Of a stretch of 64,000 nucleotides of DNA, positions 43,202-56,637 are shown in pieces. The notes under the pieces were generated by a model. The model worked only from the letters and a program-made list of their open reading frames with translations. It ran no database searches and was not told the origin of the DNA. This DNA comes from Gemmatimonadota bacterium (GTDB lineage: Bacteria; Gemmatimonadota; Gemmatimonadetes; Gemmatimonadales; Gemmatimonadaceae). The translations under genes were made by a program, and so were the position numbers. The stretch spans positions 620,001 to 684,000 of the forward strand of contig JAZKBK010000001.1 of assembly GCA_040388625.1 (NCBI GenBank), in the 5' to 3' direction. The first letter of the stretch is position 1; each line of letters opens with the position of its first letter.

Positions 43202-44488
43202 CTAGCGAGGCTCCGGTTTCGCGACAGGCGGAAGCCGATTCTGTATCGCGCCGCGCGCCGGAAGCGCCGTGTCCGGAATGATCGGCAACGTGTCCACTGG
43301 CCGCGTATGCATCGGATCTATCACCACCGGAGTGACGACTACCAGCAGCTCCGTCTCGTCGTTCTGCCACTGCGTGCTCGAGAAGAGCTGGCCGAGGATC
43401 GGAATGTCCTGCAGAAACGGGATTCCGGTCTTCACGAGATTGCGCGAATTGTTGAACAGTCCGGAGATGATCAGGCTCTCGTCTCTCCGGACATCGACCG
43501 TGGTACTCACACGTCTCGTCTGGAATGCCGGAATGCGGAAGCCAGACAATGTGATTGCGTTGTTGTTGTCGATGCTCGAGACTTCCGGCGCGAGCGACAG
43601 CTTGATGAGACTGTCGTTCAGAATCTCCGGCACGAACTTGAGCTTGACGCCGAATTCCTTGAACATGATCGTGACCGTGTTGGTGCCGCCGGCGGTCTGG
43701 CTTCCCTGCACGATCGGGATCGGAACCTCGCCGCCAGCGAGAAACGTCGCTGTATCGCGATTCCCGGCGAGGACGTCCGGCTCCGCAAGCGTCCGCGAAA
43801 GACCCTTCTGTTCGTTCGCATCCAGCAGCGCGAGCAGTCGCTTGGTGTTGAAGTCGGTCAGCACGGTCAGGAATCCGGTGGTTCCGGGAAGGGTGATCGA
43901 TCCGTCCGCGTTGAACGGGTTGTCCGTATTGAACGTGCCGGTTCCTATGCGCTCGTGGCCCTGGGCGTCTCGGTATCGCGCAGATACGCCGATCGTTCTA
44001 AGCAAGGTGCGATTCACCTCGGCGAACCGTATGTAGACCGCCACCTGTTGCCGATCCGAAGGAGACCGCACGGACACGCGCAGGTGCTGCCGTGTCCCGT
44101 TGGCAAGCCACAGGACAGCGTCCGTCTCACCGATTGCCTTCGCGTTTATCACGAATTCACGACCGCTTACAACGATGAGATCTGCGATGTCCGGCGAGGC
44201 GACCGACGCCTTTGTGAGCGCGACCGGCGTAGTCACCGGCAGCGATCTTCCCACCGAAAGTTCGATCATCGAAATCGGGTCGGCGCGTCCCTGCGTCTCG
44301 GGTCCGTAAACGGCTACACTCTGCGCGAGCGCGCTGCCTGCAGTCATGAAGGTGAACACGCCCGCGGTAGCGAGCGCTGCTGCCGTGTGCCGAAAGTTCG
44401 TAAGGGACAAGAATTCCTCGCTGAATGAAGAAAGAGCGCGTGCGACGTTGCTGCGAACGGTCCGGCATTCCACCATCTCCTGCGTCAC
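43202..44488 (-). CDS. cpaC: Tad pilus outer-membrane secretin CpaC/RcpA
   Basis: This 428-residue secretin forms the outer-membrane channel for the pilus. It has a BON/N-domain start (LPVTTPVALTKASVASPDIADLIVVSG) and the secretin domain (ALLDANEQKGLSRTLAEPDVLAGNRDTATFLAGGEVPIPIV; VRRDESLIISGLFN). The start is uncertain. GTG 44488 overlaps cpaB, but a TTG at 44410 has GAGGA just upstream and would give a clean signal peptide (NFRHTAAALATAGVFTFMTA). I show the longer frame. Confidence 0.92.
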   Translation of the reverse strand: MTQEMVECRTVRSNVARALSSFSEEFLSLTNFRHTAAALATAGVFTFMTAGSALAQSVAVYGPETQGRADPISMIELSVGRSLPVTTPVALTKASVASPDIADLIVVSGREFVINAKAIGETDAVLWLANGTRQHLRVSVRSPSDRQQVAVYIRFAEVNRTLLRTIGVSARYRDAQGHERIGTGTFNTDNPFNADGSITLPGTTGFLTVLTDFNTKRLLALLDANEQKGLSRTLAEPDVLAGNRDTATFLAGGEVPIPIVQGSQTAGGTNTVTIMFKEFGVKLKFVPEILNDSLIKLSLAPEVSSIDNNNAITLSGFRIPAFQTRRVSTTVDVRRDESLIISGLFNNSRNLVKTGIPFLQDIPILGQLFSSTQWQNDETELLVVVTPVVIDPMHTRPVDTLPIIPDTALPARGAIQNRLPPVAKPEPR

Positions 44489-45402
44489 GGCGATTTCGGA
44501 ACGCCACCGGTACCTGGCTTCTCGAACGTCTGCTTCGTCGGCTTGTCGGCGCGATACACGCTCACTGTTACCGAATCCGGGGGTGCGGGCTTGGCCATCA
44601 CGACCGCTACTGGCACCGGTTTCGGAGGTGCGACAATCCGCCGGCGAGCCTCACGATGCGCCTCCGCAGGCTTGACGGCTGGCGCTCCGCGTAGCAGGGC
44701 AAGCACGTCGCTGGATGTCGCTCCGGCAGTGCGAACCGTATCGGGATCGCCATAACCGCGCAGCACCAGTTGTATGCTCCCCTTGTTCATCGCAACGGCG
44801 AGCTGCTCGGCTTCCTGCGGCGTTACGCCAAGTGTGACAGTCGTCGCATTGTTGGGCTTGCCATCGGCGTCACGCTGCACTTCCGTCCCTACGGACAGAA
44901 CCCGCATGTTTTCCATGAACAGCTTTGCCATCTGTGTATCGCGGTTGTTCGCATCCTCGGCCAGAGTCACGAGAACGTCGACGCGACTGTTCGGTTGAAG
45001 CAGGCCGCTTATGCCTGCGACATCGTTGATGCGCACCGCCATCGCGCGCGTCCCCGGCGCGATCTTCTGCTCGAGCCCAGCGCCTGCGCCGGCCGGCGCG
45101 AGCCGTCCCGGCACTATCGCCTCGCCGTTGAAGATGGCAATGCGCGTAACGCGCCCGACCGCCGAGTCGACCGACGAGAATGCTCCGACAGGAACGGTCG
45201 CGATCGGCCAGTTGCGCGTGGTGAGCGCGAGCCGGTCGAGCGACACTCCTTCCGGGAGATCCTTCGTCGCGATAACTACAGGCTGAGTCGGAACTCGCGT
45301 CTGGTCGCGCAGCGATCCCAGCATGCGGTAGGCGCCGAACGTCGCGATAGCCGCGACAACGAGAGCGCCATAGAGAACCATCGTGTACCGTCGTTCAGCC
45401 AT
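44485..45402 (-). CDS. cpaB: Tad pilus assembly protein CpaB/RcpC
   Basis: This 305-residue protein has an N-terminal membrane helix and a SAF/BAF domain (VVIATKDLPEGVSLDRLALTTRNWP) followed by the RcpC region with ENMRVLSVGTEVQRDADGKPNNATTVTLGVTPQEAEQLAVA. The C-terminal 60 residues are Pro/Lys/Arg rich. CpaB associates with the CpaC secretin; the genes overlap by 4 bases. Confidence 0.92.
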   Translation of the reverse strand: MAERRYTMVLYGALVVAAIATFGAYRMLGSLRDQTRVPTQPVVIATKDLPEGVSLDRLALTTRNWPIATVPVGAFSSVDSAVGRVTRIAIFNGEAIVPGRLAPAGAGAGLEQKIAPGTRAMAVRINDVAGISGLLQPNSRVDVLVTLAEDANNRDTQMAKLFMENMRVLSVGTEVQRDADGKPNNATTVTLGVTPQEAEQLAVAMNKGSIQLVLRGYGDPDTVRTAGATSSDVLALLRGAPAVKPAEAHREARRRIVAPPKPVPVAVVMAKPAPPDSVTVSVYRADKPTKQTFEKPGTGGVPKSP

Positions 45403-45467
45403 CGGTCCAACCTCAGCGTGTAGGCGTTACGGAACTGCGATTCGCGTGTGTTGGTGTTCCCAACATA

Positions 45468-45887
45468 TCAACCGGTACTTCGCTCGAGGCGAAACGTCGC
45501 CTGCCGAGTGATGTTTATGTTGGCGCCAAGGAGTGATGCGAGCGGCGTGATCGTCGGCCAAGGGTAGTTGGTGACCTTGACTATCACGCTGCCTGGCACC
45601 GTTGCGACATCGATGGAGATCTCGGCGTCCGTGATTGGCGGACTGCCGAACGGCGTGAACGCAGCTTCGACGCGCGCCTTGACGACTGCCTGACTTGCAA
45701 CCGGGTCGGCCAGTACCGCTGCCTCTCTCGCACCCTCGCGAACGGCACTCGCCATGCTGTTGGCCGTGAACAACAGGCGCCCGAAGTCGATCACGCCCCA
45801 CACGAGCAACAGAAAGATCGGAAGCACGATGGCCATCTCGACCATTGCGGCACCGTCATCTCGGCGAAAGAGTCTGGGCAGACGCAT
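45468..45887 (-). CDS. tadE: TadE-like pseudopilin
   Basis: This 139-residue protein begins RRDDGAAMVEMAIVLPIFLLLVWGVIDFGRLLFTANSMASAVREGARE, the TadE signature with a cleavable G|AAMVE processing site before its N-terminal helix (given in part). TadV is expected to process it. It is coded between the prepilin peptidase and cpaB. Confidence 0.9.
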   Translation of the reverse strand: MRLPRLFRRDDGAAMVEMAIVLPIFLLLVWGVIDFGRLLFTANSMASAVREGAREAAVLADPVASQAVVKARVEAAFTPFGSPPITDAEISIDVATVPGSVIVKVTNYPWPTITPLASLLGANINITRQATFRLERSTG

Positions 45888-45898
45888 GCGGTCCTCGG

Positions 45899-46441
45899 TT
45901 ACGCCAGGGGTAACAAGGCGGCGGCCATCGCACCAAAGGCGAGTGCTACGCCATAAGGAATCGCGCGGCGCGATTTCACATCGACAGTGTGATTCATGAT
46001 TTTGCGTGGATTAGCTATTGCCAGTGCGGCAGTAGCGGCGGTTCCGGTGACACCGTACGCGAACAGCATCCACACCAACGCCAGAACTCCACCTGCCATG
46101 GCGCCAATGAGTGCGCCATCCAGGGTCCGCGCCGGACCGAGCCACGCACCCGCAGCCGCGAACAGCTTGACGTCGCCAGCTCCCAACCACCGAACCATGT
46201 AGAGCGGGAGCCACAGCGCCAGGCCAAAGAGCAGTCCGCCGACACTGATGATCAACGCGTGGGCTGGCTTTGCTGATGCTGCTGCCGAATAGGCCATACC
46301 ACTCGCAGCGAGAAGCCCCGCTACACTGTTTGGAATCCGTCGGTGTTGAAAGTCGGATACACAGGCGCACAGCAGAAGCGTCGCAAATATCGCGAAGCCG
46401 ACAACCGAAATTGTTGAACCTGCGAACAAAGATGCTTTCAT
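45899..46441 (-). CDS. cpaA: prepilin peptidase CpaA/TadV
   Basis: This 180-residue integral membrane aspartyl protease cleaves the Flp prepilins. It has about six membrane helices, the first catalytic Asp at D30 (VSDFQHRRIPN) and the second, D90, in GAGDVKLFAAAGAW. It lacks the methylase domain found in PilD, as usual for Tad systems. It follows the three pilin genes. Confidence 0.92.
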   Translation of the reverse strand: MKASLFAGSTISVVGFAIFATLLLCACVSDFQHRRIPNSVAGLLAASGMAYSAAASAKPAHALIISVGGLLFGLALWLPLYMVRWLGAGDVKLFAAAGAWLGPARTLDGALIGAMAGGVLALVWMLFAYGVTGTAATAALAIANPRKIMNHTVDVKSRRAIPYGVALAFGAMAAALLPLA

Positions 46442-52184: not shown

Positions 52185-52305
52185 GTCCGGAGACGAATGT
52201 GGGGCCTGCCTTACACGCCGCAAACTTATGGGTGTCGCGCTGCGACGGCAAGCGAGGCTGGCGGACCACCGGCGCCTCGTACCGCCGGTGGCCCGCGCCG
52301 ACACG

Positions 52306-55300
52306 TCATCCCGTTGCCATGCTCGCGTCGCTCGCGATGATGAGACCACCGGTGTAAGCGACGTACGGCACCGTGACTGACGTTGTAGTGGTCGTTCCGC
52401 TGAGGAGGGTCGTGGAATCCTCGCTGCCGTAGGACCCGTTGACGGTCGCAACCTCCACGTTGAGGCCCAAAGCGGCGCTGACCACCTCCTTGACCGTACT
52501 CGACGATTGCTCGATAACCGCGCGCGAGACGGTTTGGCTTCCGGGAGCACTCGTACGGCTGACTTCGAAGAGATACTGTTTTACGCCTGCCGCAAGCGTG
52601 AAGTCATGCTGCCCCGAATAATGGCAGACCTTGATCGGAAGCGAAGGAGGATCGGGCAGCGTAGAGAGATTTTCAGGCTTACCTGTAATTGTCACGTCGC
52701 CCGAGACTTCGACGTGAAGAGCCATCGCCGGGTCGACGTTCGCAGACAGGATGAACGGCGGGCCCAGATCGCCAGACAGGTCTCCCACCGGTTTGCCGCC
52801 TTGCTGCAGCCGAACGGTAAACCGTCCGACGGCGCCGGTAGCATTCCTGTAACCCGTCACATCGGACGCGTCGAACTGGAACAGATTGAAGATGAAAGTG
52901 CGGCTGGTGCCTGTGATCGGCTGCGGCGGAGCTGGCGCACCCTTGGGTACGACAGGTGGCTGCGTCGGCGCTGCCGGAGCCATCGGTTGCGCTGGTGCTA
53001 CCGCGGTCGAAGTCCCGCTGTCGCCCCCGGTTGCTCCACCCGACGTCGCACCAGAAGCCGACCCAGTAGCCGCGGCTCCGCTCGTCGGCGCGGGTGTGCC
53101 CCCGCCGCTCGCGCCACTACTACTCCCACCGGCAGTCGGTGCGACGGCTGCTCCGCCACCTGCGCTGCCGGATGCTCCCTTCGCACCCCCGCCGGAGGTA
53201 GCGCCGCCACCTGTTGTCCCACCACCGCCGCCGGATTTGTCGATCTGCTTGCCCGCAAGGCTTGTCGCATCGCTCGCGAGTGATTGCAGTAAACTCGCGA
53301 CCTCGGACGACGTCGACATGTCGCGGAAGATGTCACTCTTCCCAAGCAGTGCCAGCGCGCCCGCCATTGCCACGGGATCCGGCGCCGCCGGCGGGTTCAC
53401 GATATTGAGCATCGAGCTCGGGAACGCAGTCGGCGTGGTTGATGTCTGCACGTTCCGCGTGCCAAGTCCGATGTCGGTGATCGCAGGTGCGGCGTCAGGA
53501 TCCGGCGACTTCTGCCAATCCCAGAAGCGGGTGTCGTCGATTACCTCGGCCGCATTGCAGTGCCCGAGCTTCGCCTCCGCAAATATCCCGCGGGTCGGAA
53601 GGCTGACGACGCGTTCGTCGCGCGCGGGCGAAACAATCGGAAGCGCCGGCATGCTTCCTTGGAGGTTGCTGCTGGTCGCGACGTCAATGAGACTCGGATC
53701 CAGTGCGAACGCGGTGCTGTCGCCCAACACGTCGAGCGCGCGATTGGTGATCGCTTCAAAGATTGGCCGGACCTGCCCATGCACGTTGAGCGTGGAGCCA
53801 CGAAGGCGCATATAGCGCGAATTGGGATCCTCACCCAGCCATATCAGCCGGTAGTAGTACGATTTGTTGTTGTCGAGGTGATATTTCAGACGCACGCGCA
53901 ACAGATTCTCGTCGTCGGTCAATTTTGATTCTGGAGTTGGCGCGGTCGGAGCCGGGGGCAGGGTCGAAGTAAATATGGTGAAAGTGCCTGTAGATCCTTG
54001 CACGTGAGGATCCAGCGTCGTGGGCGTTGCTAGTTGCCCCACCAGGATATTCGAGCCGTCAGACATAATCGCGGCAACCGAACCGCCAGCAAATGAAATA
54101 GCGAACTTGTTGTCGACGCTTCCAGGGTCCCCGGAATCCCCGTCGAATGTGAAACTGAAATCGATTTCGGTAATTTGGCGCCGAGTGATCGACGAAGCAG
54201 GTACCGCTACAAAGCTTTCTGTGCGGCTTGATTGCTGAAAATTGCCATCTTGCTGGAGTTGATCGGCGGGTTTCAGGGAATCGTTGCGCTGCAACGTGAT
54301 GGAAGTGCCGTCGTTCAAGATGACTTTGGCTCTTAGCGTGCCTCCGGTAATTGACGGAATGTCCACCTGCAGGGAGATGCTGAAGCTACGTATCATCTGT
54401 GCAAACGGATCGGGGGGCGCCGGCAGTGGCAGCAAAGTCCACGCGAAGTACTTCTCAACGGCGGCGAACCCAGGCAGCAGCGACGCATCGACAAGACCCG
54501 GTTCCAGATACCGTCGAAATGTGAAGATGGCTTCTTCGTCGAAGTCCGGCATGTGGCTGGGTATGAGTACCGCCGGCGTAACATCGGCCCGCTCCACAAC
54601 GACGCGGAAGTGCCGCAACACTTCGTAATACAGCAGCGTCATCGCGTGAGCGTGATTGTGATTGCGCACCGTTCGCGTCTGCGCGCTCGCCTGTTCGGAC
54701 TGCTTGCTCTGCACGACGACCGTGCTTCTCAGATCTCTGACGGCGGTCGAGTGCTGCGCGAACGAATCCTGCAGTGACTGAACCGTTTGGGAGCTGACGT
54801 CGCGATCCCCCTGCGTCGTCGAATACCCGCCACCAATCGAGCCCACGGCCGAGCCGTATGCGCTCGATACCGCTGCAGCGATGCCGCCCAGGAGTGAGCC
54901 GCCTGCCTGAAACTCGTGCACGGTCGCGCTCACAACTTCATCCACCGTCCGGTCGCGCACCTGGCTGTGCTCCAGCGTGTCGGTGAGCATGTTTTCTTCG
55001 TTGCGCGAATCGGTCGACTGTCGCGCCCAATCGACAATCGCAAGGTTTACCTGCTCGCCCGGCGCGAGCGGTAAGCTGTAGGCGATCTGCCCAAGTCCAT
55101 GCCCAACCGGAATCCAGGTGACGTCGTAGTTCACGATCAGCGCCAGCTGAGTGTTTCCGGTGAACGCGAGTGGCGCAAATTCCGGTTTTATCGCAGTCTG
55201 TGCGAGCGGTTTCGCAACAACCAGCTCGGCCCGGCCCTTTGCGTTCGCGCCCTTTGGAGCTGGCGCCGCCGCGGGCGACGTAATGGTTACGTCATACATG

Positions 55301-55890
55301 CTCGGCAACTGCACGATCTGATGCACCTGGAAGTGCTGCGTCGCGACGTTGGATGGAAGCAGCGCCTCGCATCCATCCTGACCGACCAGCATCGCTGGAA
55401 CGTTGGCGAACGATCCTGGCGACAGATTGAGGTCTACCAGAGTCGGCGACTGCATTGACGGGTAACTTCCGGCGTCCGCCTCATACACGCCGTTCCTGTC
55501 GACAGCGAGCCGCAGGACTATCGCTTCCGGTCCTGTTTGCGCACTGGGCAAAGCGTCCACGACACTCTGCAACGGCCCGTAGATGTGCAGCGAGAGACCG
55601 TCCAGCTGACTGGCGAGGCTGCCTCCAGTCTGTATCTCGGTAAGTATCTCGGTCTGGCGTCGTAACGGCTCAAGATCCCACGAGAGGTAGCCGGCGTGGT
55701 CGCTCGCCAATACTCCCAGAGCGATCTCTACACTCTGCCGCGGAACAGATTGGCCATCCCCGCTCTGCCCCAGACCCAGCTGTGCGGTCGCGAACACCGG
55801 GACGTTCGCCACTGGAGCGCCGGTATCGGTCTCCATCAGGAAAACGGAAAACCGCCCAGGGCCTTCGTTTGCTCCGAAAGGGACACTCAT
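52306..55890 (-). CDS. large (1194-residue) protein of unknown function
   Basis: I do not recognise this protein. It has no signal peptide. Residues 10-60 look like an Ig/transthyretin-type beta domain (FSVFLMETDTGAPVANVPVF). Residues 240-300 include TWIPVGHGLGQIAYSLPLAP. Residues 296-410 are rich in helix and in Ser/Gln. Residues 410-426 form the striking NHNHAHAMTLLYYEVLR. A beta-rich part runs 500-640, then a less clear region to 885. A low-complexity Gly/Ser/Ala/Thr/Pro linker spans 886-990. A compact C-terminal domain (about 995-1194) opens RTFIFNLFQFDASDV. It lies between a Spy-like gene and the porin, all on the minus strand. Confidence 0.8.
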   Translation of the reverse strand: MSVPFGANEGPGRFSVFLMETDTGAPVANVPVFATAQLGLGQSGDGQSVPRQSVEIALGVLASDHAGYLSWDLEPLRRQTEILTEIQTGGSLASQLDGLSLHIYGPLQSVVDALPSAQTGPEAIVLRLAVDRNGVYEADAGSYPSMQSPTLVDLNLSPGSFANVPAMLVGQDGCEALLPSNVATQHFQVHQIVQLPSMYDVTITSPAAAPAPKGANAKGRAELVVAKPLAQTAIKPEFAPLAFTGNTQLALIVNYDVTWIPVGHGLGQIAYSLPLAPGEQVNLAIVDWARQSTDSRNEENMLTDTLEHSQVRDRTVDEVVSATVHEFQAGGSLLGGIAAAVSSAYGSAVGSIGGGYSTTQGDRDVSSQTVQSLQDSFAQHSTAVRDLRSTVVVQSKQSEQASAQTRTVRNHNHAHAMTLLYYEVLRHFRVVVERADVTPAVLIPSHMPDFDEEAIFTFRRYLEPGLVDASLLPGFAAVEKYFAWTLLPLPAPPDPFAQMIRSFSISLQVDIPSITGGTLRAKVILNDGTSITLQRNDSLKPADQLQQDGNFQQSSRTESFVAVPASSITRRQITEIDFSFTFDGDSGDPGSVDNKFAISFAGGSVAAIMSDGSNILVGQLATPTTLDPHVQGSTGTFTIFTSTLPPAPTAPTPESKLTDDENLLRVRLKYHLDNNKSYYYRLIWLGEDPNSRYMRLRGSTLNVHGQVRPIFEAITNRALDVLGDSTAFALDPSLIDVATSSNLQGSMPALPIVSPARDERVVSLPTRGIFAEAKLGHCNAAEVIDDTRFWDWQKSPDPDAAPAITDIGLGTRNVQTSTTPTAFPSSMLNIVNPPAAPDPVAMAGALALLGKSDIFRDMSTSSEVASLLQSLASDATSLAGKQIDKSGGGGGTTGGGATSGGGAKGASGSAGGGAAVAPTAGGSSSGASGGGTPAPTSGAAATGSASGATSGGATGGDSGTSTAVAPAQPMAPAAPTQPPVVPKGAPAPPQPITGTSRTFIFNLFQFDASDVTGYRNATGAVGRFTVRLQQGGKPVGDLSGDLGPPFILSANVDPAMALHVEVSGDVTITGKPENLSTLPDPPSLPIKVCHYSGQHDFTLAAGVKQYLFEVSRTSAPGSQTVSRAVIEQSSSTVKEVVSAALGLNVEVATVNGSYGSEDSTTLLSGTTTTTSVTVPYVAYTGGLIIASDASMATG

Positions 55891-56100
55891 GCCGGTATCC
55901 AGCGTCGGTTGTGAATTGCGTTACCGCGCGGCCAGGACGAAACGGGTCGCAGTTGGCGGCTGGTGTTCGCAGCATATTGAGGGCCACGGCGGAGCCGGCG
56001 TGCAGCGCGATGCTGGGCGCATCAATGCGGTCCGCGCGTTTTTTCACATTCCGGGCCGACTTTGCGCGTCGCTGAGCGCGACGTGCACCAGCAACTGGCG

Positions 56101-56637
56101 TTACGGTTGCGGACCGCCAGGATCGCCGTTGTTCCCGCGTTGCATTTCGCGAATGCGCTGCCGAATCTGGGCCTGGAGCCCAACGTATTGCGCAACCTGC
56201 ACCGGCGTCATGAAGCTGGAGAGCTGTTGCTGCTCGTCCTGCTGCAACGCGAAGCGCTTACCCTGAAGGTCGTGCGCCTGCGCCATGAGTTGTGCAACCC
56301 GGGCCTGATCGGCCGAGCTTCCCTTGGCCATCTCGTCACGCAGACTCATGCGAACGCCGCGCTCCTGCTCCAGGAGAGCATTACGCTCACTACCGATGCT
56401 TGCATTGACGGAGCGCAGACGATTGACCTGATCGTCGTTCAGGTTGAGCCGCTGCCGAACTATCTGCTCGCTGCGCTGACGAAACTCCTGCTCCAGCGCC
56501 TGCCTGTGCGGCTGCACGCCCTGCGCCGGCGGCGGACGCATCGGCCGTATGCGACGGCCCTGGGCACTCGCGGTTGTGGCGCCGGCGACACTCGTTACGC
56601 ACAGCACCGCGGCCGTCATGAGGGTAACTACTCTCAT
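56101..56637 (-). CDS. Spy/CpxP-like periplasmic chaperone
   Basis: This 178-residue protein has a signal peptide (to VAGATTASAQG) and an all-helical body with LNLNDDQVNRL and TPVQVAQYVGLQAQI, the LTxxQ-type repeats of Spy/CpxP. It is likely a periplasmic refolding chaperone. Its gene overlaps the anti-sigma factor gene by 4 bases, so it is co-expressed with the sigma pair and is probably a target of that envelope-stress control. Confidence 0.8.
   Translation of the reverse strand: MRVVTLMTAAVLCVTSVAGATTASAQGRRIRPMRPPPAQGVQPHRQALEQEFRQRSEQIVRQRLNLNDDQVNRLRSVNASIGSERNALLEQERGVRMSLRDEMAKGSSADQARVAQLMAQAHDLQGKRFALQQDEQQQLSSFMTPVQVAQYVGLQAQIRQRIREMQRGNNGDPGGPQP

What the first reader, a model, noticed from the sequence alone, without database searches (positions are those of the whole stretch)
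52306..55890. Unrecognised 1194-residue protein with a HNHAH motif and a Gly/Ser/Ala linker
Seen: no signal peptide, several beta domains, a helix-rich Ser/Gln segment, the unusual NHNHAHAMTLLYYEVLR, and a 100-residue flexible linker to a C-terminal domain. The His cluster may bind metal. It lies between an envelope-stress operon and the porin operon. It does not match a toxin, phage or defence family that I know.
Basis: seen in the sequence. Interest (0 to 1): 0.6.

Follow-up and report, generated by a model that had tools for sequence, protein, structure and literature searches.

The report
Mobile carrier protein linked to toxins
The gene encodes a member of an undescribed family of large modular proteins, scattered by gene transfer across bacteria and archaea, whose shared core is joined to interchangeable surface-binding and wall-attacking parts or sits beside a toxin gene, so it is probably the carrier part of a weapon used between microbes.

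Summary
The ORF is real: minus strand, 55890..52306, 1194 aa, no signal peptide, one copy in the genome. It matches nothing in Pfam, NCBIfam, PHROGs, PADLOC or the PDB. It is not an orphan. Its core (aa ~245-485 and ~665-885) recurs in Streptomyces, Polaromonas, Nostoc, Persephonella, Nitrospirae, rhizobia and haloarchaea, often on plasmids, and was not found in IMG/VR. The core is constant (62-65% identity to Streptomyces). The domain inserted between its halves (PLAT in Persephonella, tectonin in S. clavuligerus) and the C-terminus (lytic transglycosylase, DUF2272, OmpA) vary. In Sinorhizobium and the haloarchaeon Salinirubellus a distant member is followed directly by a pre-toxin-TG toxin gene. 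In two same-genus genomes the gene is absent: 3.9 kb is replaced by about 80-260 bp between the cpxP-like gene and the porin. The 'HNHAH' motif is really N-x-N-x-x-H. Cys414 and Cys781 appear and vanish together across the family, so the core halves touch, probably through a disulfide. Best reading: a horizontally spread, signal-less carrier of a modular antagonism system, acting outside the producer. Delivery route and the query's own C-terminal activity are unknown; no immunity gene was found.

The parts
52306..55890 (-). whole gene, 1194 aa, ATG start
   Evidence: single copy in own genome
55186..55890 (-). N-terminal region aa 1-235 (beta-rich start 'DTGAPVANVPV...SDHAGYLSWDL'; C174)
   Evidence: 50% identical to Streptomyces L002; replaced by other sequence in distant members, e.g. 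ComEA-like HHH in L007
54436..55185 (-). core half A, aa 236-485
   Evidence: 65% identical to L002, 20-48% in other phyla; alignment A1
54697..55005 (-). predicted helical hairpin, helices aa 296-329 and 367-398
   Evidence: same two helices in both low-confidence AF2 models
54793..54903 (-). Gly/Ala/Ser-rich, nearly uncharged hairpin tip, aa 330-366
   Evidence: present in most members; absent from short forms of one family
54646..54663 (-). motif N410-H-N412-H-A-H415 (consensus N-x-N-x-x-H)
   Evidence: N410/N412 invariant, H415 over 90% in A1; rows listed
53899..54435 (-). variable insert between core halves, aa 486-664
   Evidence: 25% identity to L002 against 62-65% for the core; PLAT in L003, tectonin in L010/L013; no detectable homology of this insert to the PLAT one
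53236..53898 (-). core half B, aa 665-885
   Evidence: 62% identical to L002
53515..53601 (-). core B signature LPTRGIFAEAKLGHCNAAEVIDDTRFWDW, aa 764-792, with C778
   Evidence: alignment A4; position 781 covaries with 414
52906..53235 (-). Gly/Ser/Ala/Thr/Pro linker, aa 886-995
52309..52905 (-). C-terminal module aa 996-1194, unknown activity, shared with Streptomyces L002/L009 only
   Evidence: 30-34% identity; no other match in plasmids
52229..56142 (.). segment absent from same-genus genomes (single-gene insertion)
   Evidence: replaced by 82 bp in L084 and by about 260 bp in L085 (there counted between window 52070 and 56141)

Best explanation
It is the carrier protein of a modular toxin-like system spread by horizontal transfer. 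SHOWN: a constant core; an exchangeable domain between the core halves; a C-terminal module after a flexible linker in this protein; cell-wall-active or wall-binding C-termini in several relatives; a separately encoded pre-toxin-TG toxin beside some distant relatives; recent gain as a single gene. INFERRED: the protein is made without a signal peptide and leaves the producer by lysis or an unconventional route. Outside, pairs of cysteines lock the two core halves together (the query keeps the C174-C778 pair). The insert binds a surface lipid or glycan, the helical hairpin with its Gly/Ala tip engages the membrane, and the C-terminal module (or partner toxin) acts on the target envelope or cell. 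The query's C-terminal module is assumed to be such an effector; its activity is unknown.
For: Relatives across phyla and two domains. Core A/insert/core B/C-term identity to Streptomyces 65/25/62/30%. PLAT and tectonin inserts. DUF2272 in L008 and L012; OmpA-like C-terminus in L007 and L071; lytic transglycosylase in L011, E=4e-41 to 9udh. PT-TG gene directly downstream of family members in S. mexicanum (1.2e-13), S. terangae (1.6e-13) and the archaeon Salinirubellus (3.7e-9), although PT-TG occurs in only 1 of 200 genomes of the window's phylum. Those proteins match the core profile at 7e-26 or better where tested. S8 peptidase fusion in L060; PMC3482391 lists subtilisin among processing proteases of polymorphic toxins and says C-terminal OmpA may be a toxin domain. 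Empty sites. Cys414/Cys781: 9 both, 0 mixed, 17 neither; 6 changes each on the tree, in step in all 5 well-supported independent pairs.
Against: No catalytic domain is recognisable in the query. No immunity gene: nothing small and conserved lies downstream. PT-TG is absent from the own genome. No known export signal. Some members (S. clavuligerus, Embleya) end soon after the core, and one family of the same order has ~500-aa forms without the Gly loop or C-terminal module. AF2 models have mean pLDDT of 38 and 44, so the fold is unknown. Membrane insertion rests on composition alone. Five independent Cys pairs give a sign-test p of only 0.06. The PT-TG link is in the most distant clade only.
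Confidence: 0.45

Rival explanations
1. A surface or wall scaffold of the producer itself: an adhesive or autolysin-organising protein that binds its own glycans, lipids or peptidoglycan.
For: OmpA, PLAT and tectonin modules are binding domains; lytic transglycosylase and DUF2272 could remodel the producer's own wall. Some members carry no effector module.
Against: No signal peptide in ten members checked; a DUF2272 form occurs in a haloarchaeon, a group without peptidoglycan (established knowledge); PT-TG toxin genes beside members; very patchy distribution.
Confidence: 0.2
2. An intracellular defence protein: on phage or plasmid attack the hairpin opens the inner membrane and the C-terminal hydrolase lyses the cell.
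For: Signal-less; single-gene mobile island; plasmid neighbourhoods with restriction, TIR and TA genes, e.g. L005.
Against: No PADLOC match; covarying cysteines point to an oxidising place; the PLAT, tectonin and PT-TG links fit antagonism better.
Confidence: 0.12
3. Cargo of a contractile injection system (eCIS or T6SS).
For: Modular C-termini and taxonomic spread resemble such cargo.
Against: No phage-like or eCIS sheath (PF04984) in the own genome; family and sheath genomes share only G163 and G147 of 200. No VipB/TssC in the own, Streptomyces G207, G498 or Persephonella G208 genomes.
Confidence: 0.05
4. Some other function of the core, for example a self-assembling structure or an enzyme, with the toxin links incidental.
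For: The conserved N-x-N-x-x-H and core B signatures could form an active site; core-only short forms exist.
Against: Recurrent effector and binding modules and toxin neighbours in unrelated hosts.
Confidence: 0.18

Closest known systems
Polymorphic toxin systems (PMC3482391)
   Same: Constant N-terminal part, adhesion or presentation domains in the middle, exchangeable C-terminus; pre-toxin-TG and subtilisin partners in relatives
   Different: No known trafficking domain or secretion machine, no linked immunity gene, and the core is a new unclassified domain
Colicin / S-type pyocin bacteriocins (from knowledge)
   Same: Modular, no signal peptide, plasmid-borne in many hosts, would need lysis or an unusual exit
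   Different: No immunity gene, no recognised colicin domain, far wider host range including archaea, size 1000-1760 aa
eCIS / T6SS effectors
   Same: Hydrolytic C-terminal modules, found in environmental bacteria and archaea
   Different: The own genome has neither sheath

Membership tests
Polymorphic toxin system | constant carrier part with C-terminal effector domains that are swapped between members | tested here: met
   (family level; the query's own C-terminus is unclassified)
Polymorphic toxin system | linked immunity gene ('key feature', PMC3482391) | tested here: not met
   no shared or small same-strand gene downstream; paper text
Polymorphic toxin system | signature trafficking domain or secretion genes | tested here: not met
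   no Pfam hit in the query; no signal peptide; no T6SS or eCIS sheath. T7SS and T5SS genes were not searched
Polymorphic toxin system | pre-toxin domain in the system | tested here: inconclusive
   present beside three distant members; absent from the own genome
His-cluster metalloprotein | conserved metal-ligand histidines | tested here: not met
   H411 and H413 not conserved; only H415, with N410 and N412
Phage protein | occurrence in viral genomes or PHROGs | tested here: not met
   no relative in IMG/VR by protein, alignment or motif scans; no PHROG; one unannotated 'unverified' faecal contig only
Bacteriocin | kills related strains | not testable with these tools
   needs a killing assay
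Anti-phage defence | match to a known defence model | tested here: not met
   PADLOC

The most novel reading that the evidence does not exclude
The core is a new, self-sufficient delivery domain shared by bacteria and archaea that carries exchangeable effectors, fused or separately encoded, into neighbouring cells without a contractile apparatus or dedicated secretion system.
Probability: 0.25. Interest if true: 0.85.

Novelty: new variant of a known kind. Interest (0 to 1): 0.6.

Why it matters
If right, this is an uncatalogued carrier domain of inter-microbial antagonism, found in several bacterial phyla and haloarchaea and missed by current libraries. Its core profile would expose many new effector modules, and an archaeal pair with a pre-toxin-TG toxin gives a direct test of protein weapons in archaea.

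Tried and rejected
Metal-binding His cluster: histidines not conserved. Regulation or function through the envelope-stress operon: operon and porin exist without the gene in same-genus genomes. Phage origin: no IMG/VR relative; three DTRFWxW motif hits (L075-L077) were chance. Contractile-system cargo: no sheath. PLAT fold for the query insert: not detectable by Pfam or hhalign, so not claimed. AlphaFold with 4 sequences failed (pLDDT 38 and 44); Foldseek matched in essence only the PLAT insert of L003. Conserved neighbours: MacB-like permeases recur in the high-GC loci but are common paralogues. L068/L069 were shadow-frame false positives. Target-site duplication: one 9-bp repeat, about what chance gives. 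Literature: no paper holds the family's motif strings. Several genome-search runs failed on the server (8, 19, 29, 31).

Full report
WHAT IS THERE. The gene lies on the minus strand, 55890 to 52306, 1194 aa. Pfam, NCBIfam and PHROGs give nothing at E<=1, and the PDB gives only weak chance matches. It is present once in the genome. The N-terminus lacks a signal peptide, as do nine other members checked, while three exported neighbours show one clearly.

IT IS A FAMILY. A first scan found relatives in Streptomyces (50% identity), a Persephonella MAG and a Nitrospirae MAG. Plasmid records added Polaromonas, Nostoc, Caballeronia, Psychrobacter, Haladaptatus, S. clavuligerus, Embleya, Novosphingobium, Ruegeria, Sinorhizobium and Miltoncostaea, later Ciceribacter and the haloarchaeon Salinirubellus. 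A core profile (A1) finds 16 of 200 genomes of the window's phylum. It finds 5 of 396 in the phylum of Streptomyces, of which two (L068, L069) are shadow-frame artefacts. The distribution is therefore very patchy. Scans of IMG/VR by protein, sub-alignments and two motif patterns found no viral member.

ANATOMY. Against Streptomyces L002 the segments are: N-term 50%, core A 65%, insert 25%, core B 62%, C-term 30%. The insert position carries a PLAT domain in Persephonella (2.9e-10) and a tectonin domain in Streptomyces/Embleya. The query's insert has no detectable homology to the PLAT one. C-termini are a lytic transglycosylase in Caballeronia (4e-41), DUF2272 in Haladaptatus and in the faecal contig L012, and an OmpA-like domain in Psychrobacter (below Pfam's cut-off) and L071. 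The Nostoc C-terminus hints at a GH19 fold, only weakly (E=0.83). One relative has an S8 peptidase in front of the core (L060). Both AF2 runs, though poor, predict two ~33-residue helices flanking a Gly/Ala/Ser loop; that loop is poor in charges and rich in small residues in most long members.

THE MOTIF. N410 and N412 are invariant in A1 and H415 nearly so; the other two histidines vary. Position 414, inside the motif, is Cys exactly when position 781 in core B is Cys: 9 both, 0 mixed, 17 neither. On a tree built without these columns both traits change six times; in all five independent pairs on well-supported branches they change in step, sign-test p 0.06. Two members have Ser at both. C174 and C778 also tend to occur together (10 both, 0 only 174, 3 only 778, 3 neither; p 0.036). 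Pairwise loss fits disulfides better than a four-Cys metal site; that is inference. Disulfides would mean life outside the cytoplasm.

TOXIN LINK. In a distant clade of the family (L016, L087, L088, L089, L053; core profile E 7e-26 or better where tested) the gene directly downstream encodes a pre-toxin-TG protein in S. mexicanum, S. terangae and the archaeon Salinirubellus. The two Sinorhizobium loci are near-identical, so these are two independent lineages, not three. In Ciceribacter a 517-aa gene without a credible family match is there. PT-TG is rare: 1 of 200 genomes in the window's phylum. Novosphingobium and Ruegeria share another downstream gene of unknown kind.

HOW IT GOT HERE. In same-genus genome G040 the flanks align at 89% and 95%, and window 52229-56142 is replaced by 82 bp; in G197 a similar gap is about 260 bp. 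No convincing repeat marks the ends. GC of the insert (0.618) is close to the flanks (0.628, 0.631). The absence from both same-genus genomes, together with homologues in distant phyla, favours gain over loss. The envelope-stress and porin neighbours are therefore incidental, though read-through from the sigma operon is possible.

INTERPRETATION. A constant core, swappable binding insert, swappable wall-active C-terminus or adjacent toxin, mobility, and no signal peptide together point to the carrier of a toxin-like system (0.45). Export, target and the query's own effector activity are not shown. The immunity gene that marks polymorphic toxins is missing, so I do not file it as one; PMC3482391 notes that toxins aimed at distantly related organisms need none. 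Contractile delivery is unlikely for the query: no PF04984 or VipB in its genome.

Noticed in passing
L056, L057, L058, L059, L064 (one family of the window's order): Short ~500-aa forms of the core without the Gly-rich loop, insert or C-terminal module; they may show the core's basic role.
   Followed up: partly
L060:9211-12420 (-): Subtilisin-like S8 peptidase fused in front of a short core; the peptidase is closest to T7SS mycosin models (below cut-off).
   Followed up: partly
L014:11080-12300 and L015:11243-12235: Novosphingobium and Ruegeria share a conserved gene directly downstream of the family member (E about 5e-52), no Pfam hit; Novosphingobium also has a neprosin-like peptidase gene upstream.
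   Followed up: partly
L089:11155-12816: A haloarchaeal plasmid (Salinirubellus) encodes a pre-toxin-TG protein whose C-terminus looks like a nuclease by eye.
   Followed up: no
L005:14623-15597: The Polaromonas C-terminus has a 'YEIKP' stretch like PD-(D/E)XK nucleases, by eye only; no Pfam match.
   Followed up: no
window 43202-46441: Genes resembling a tight-adherence (Tad/Flp) pilus locus, with CpaB-, secretin-, TadE- and prepilin-peptidase-like ORFs, seen by eye.
   Followed up: no
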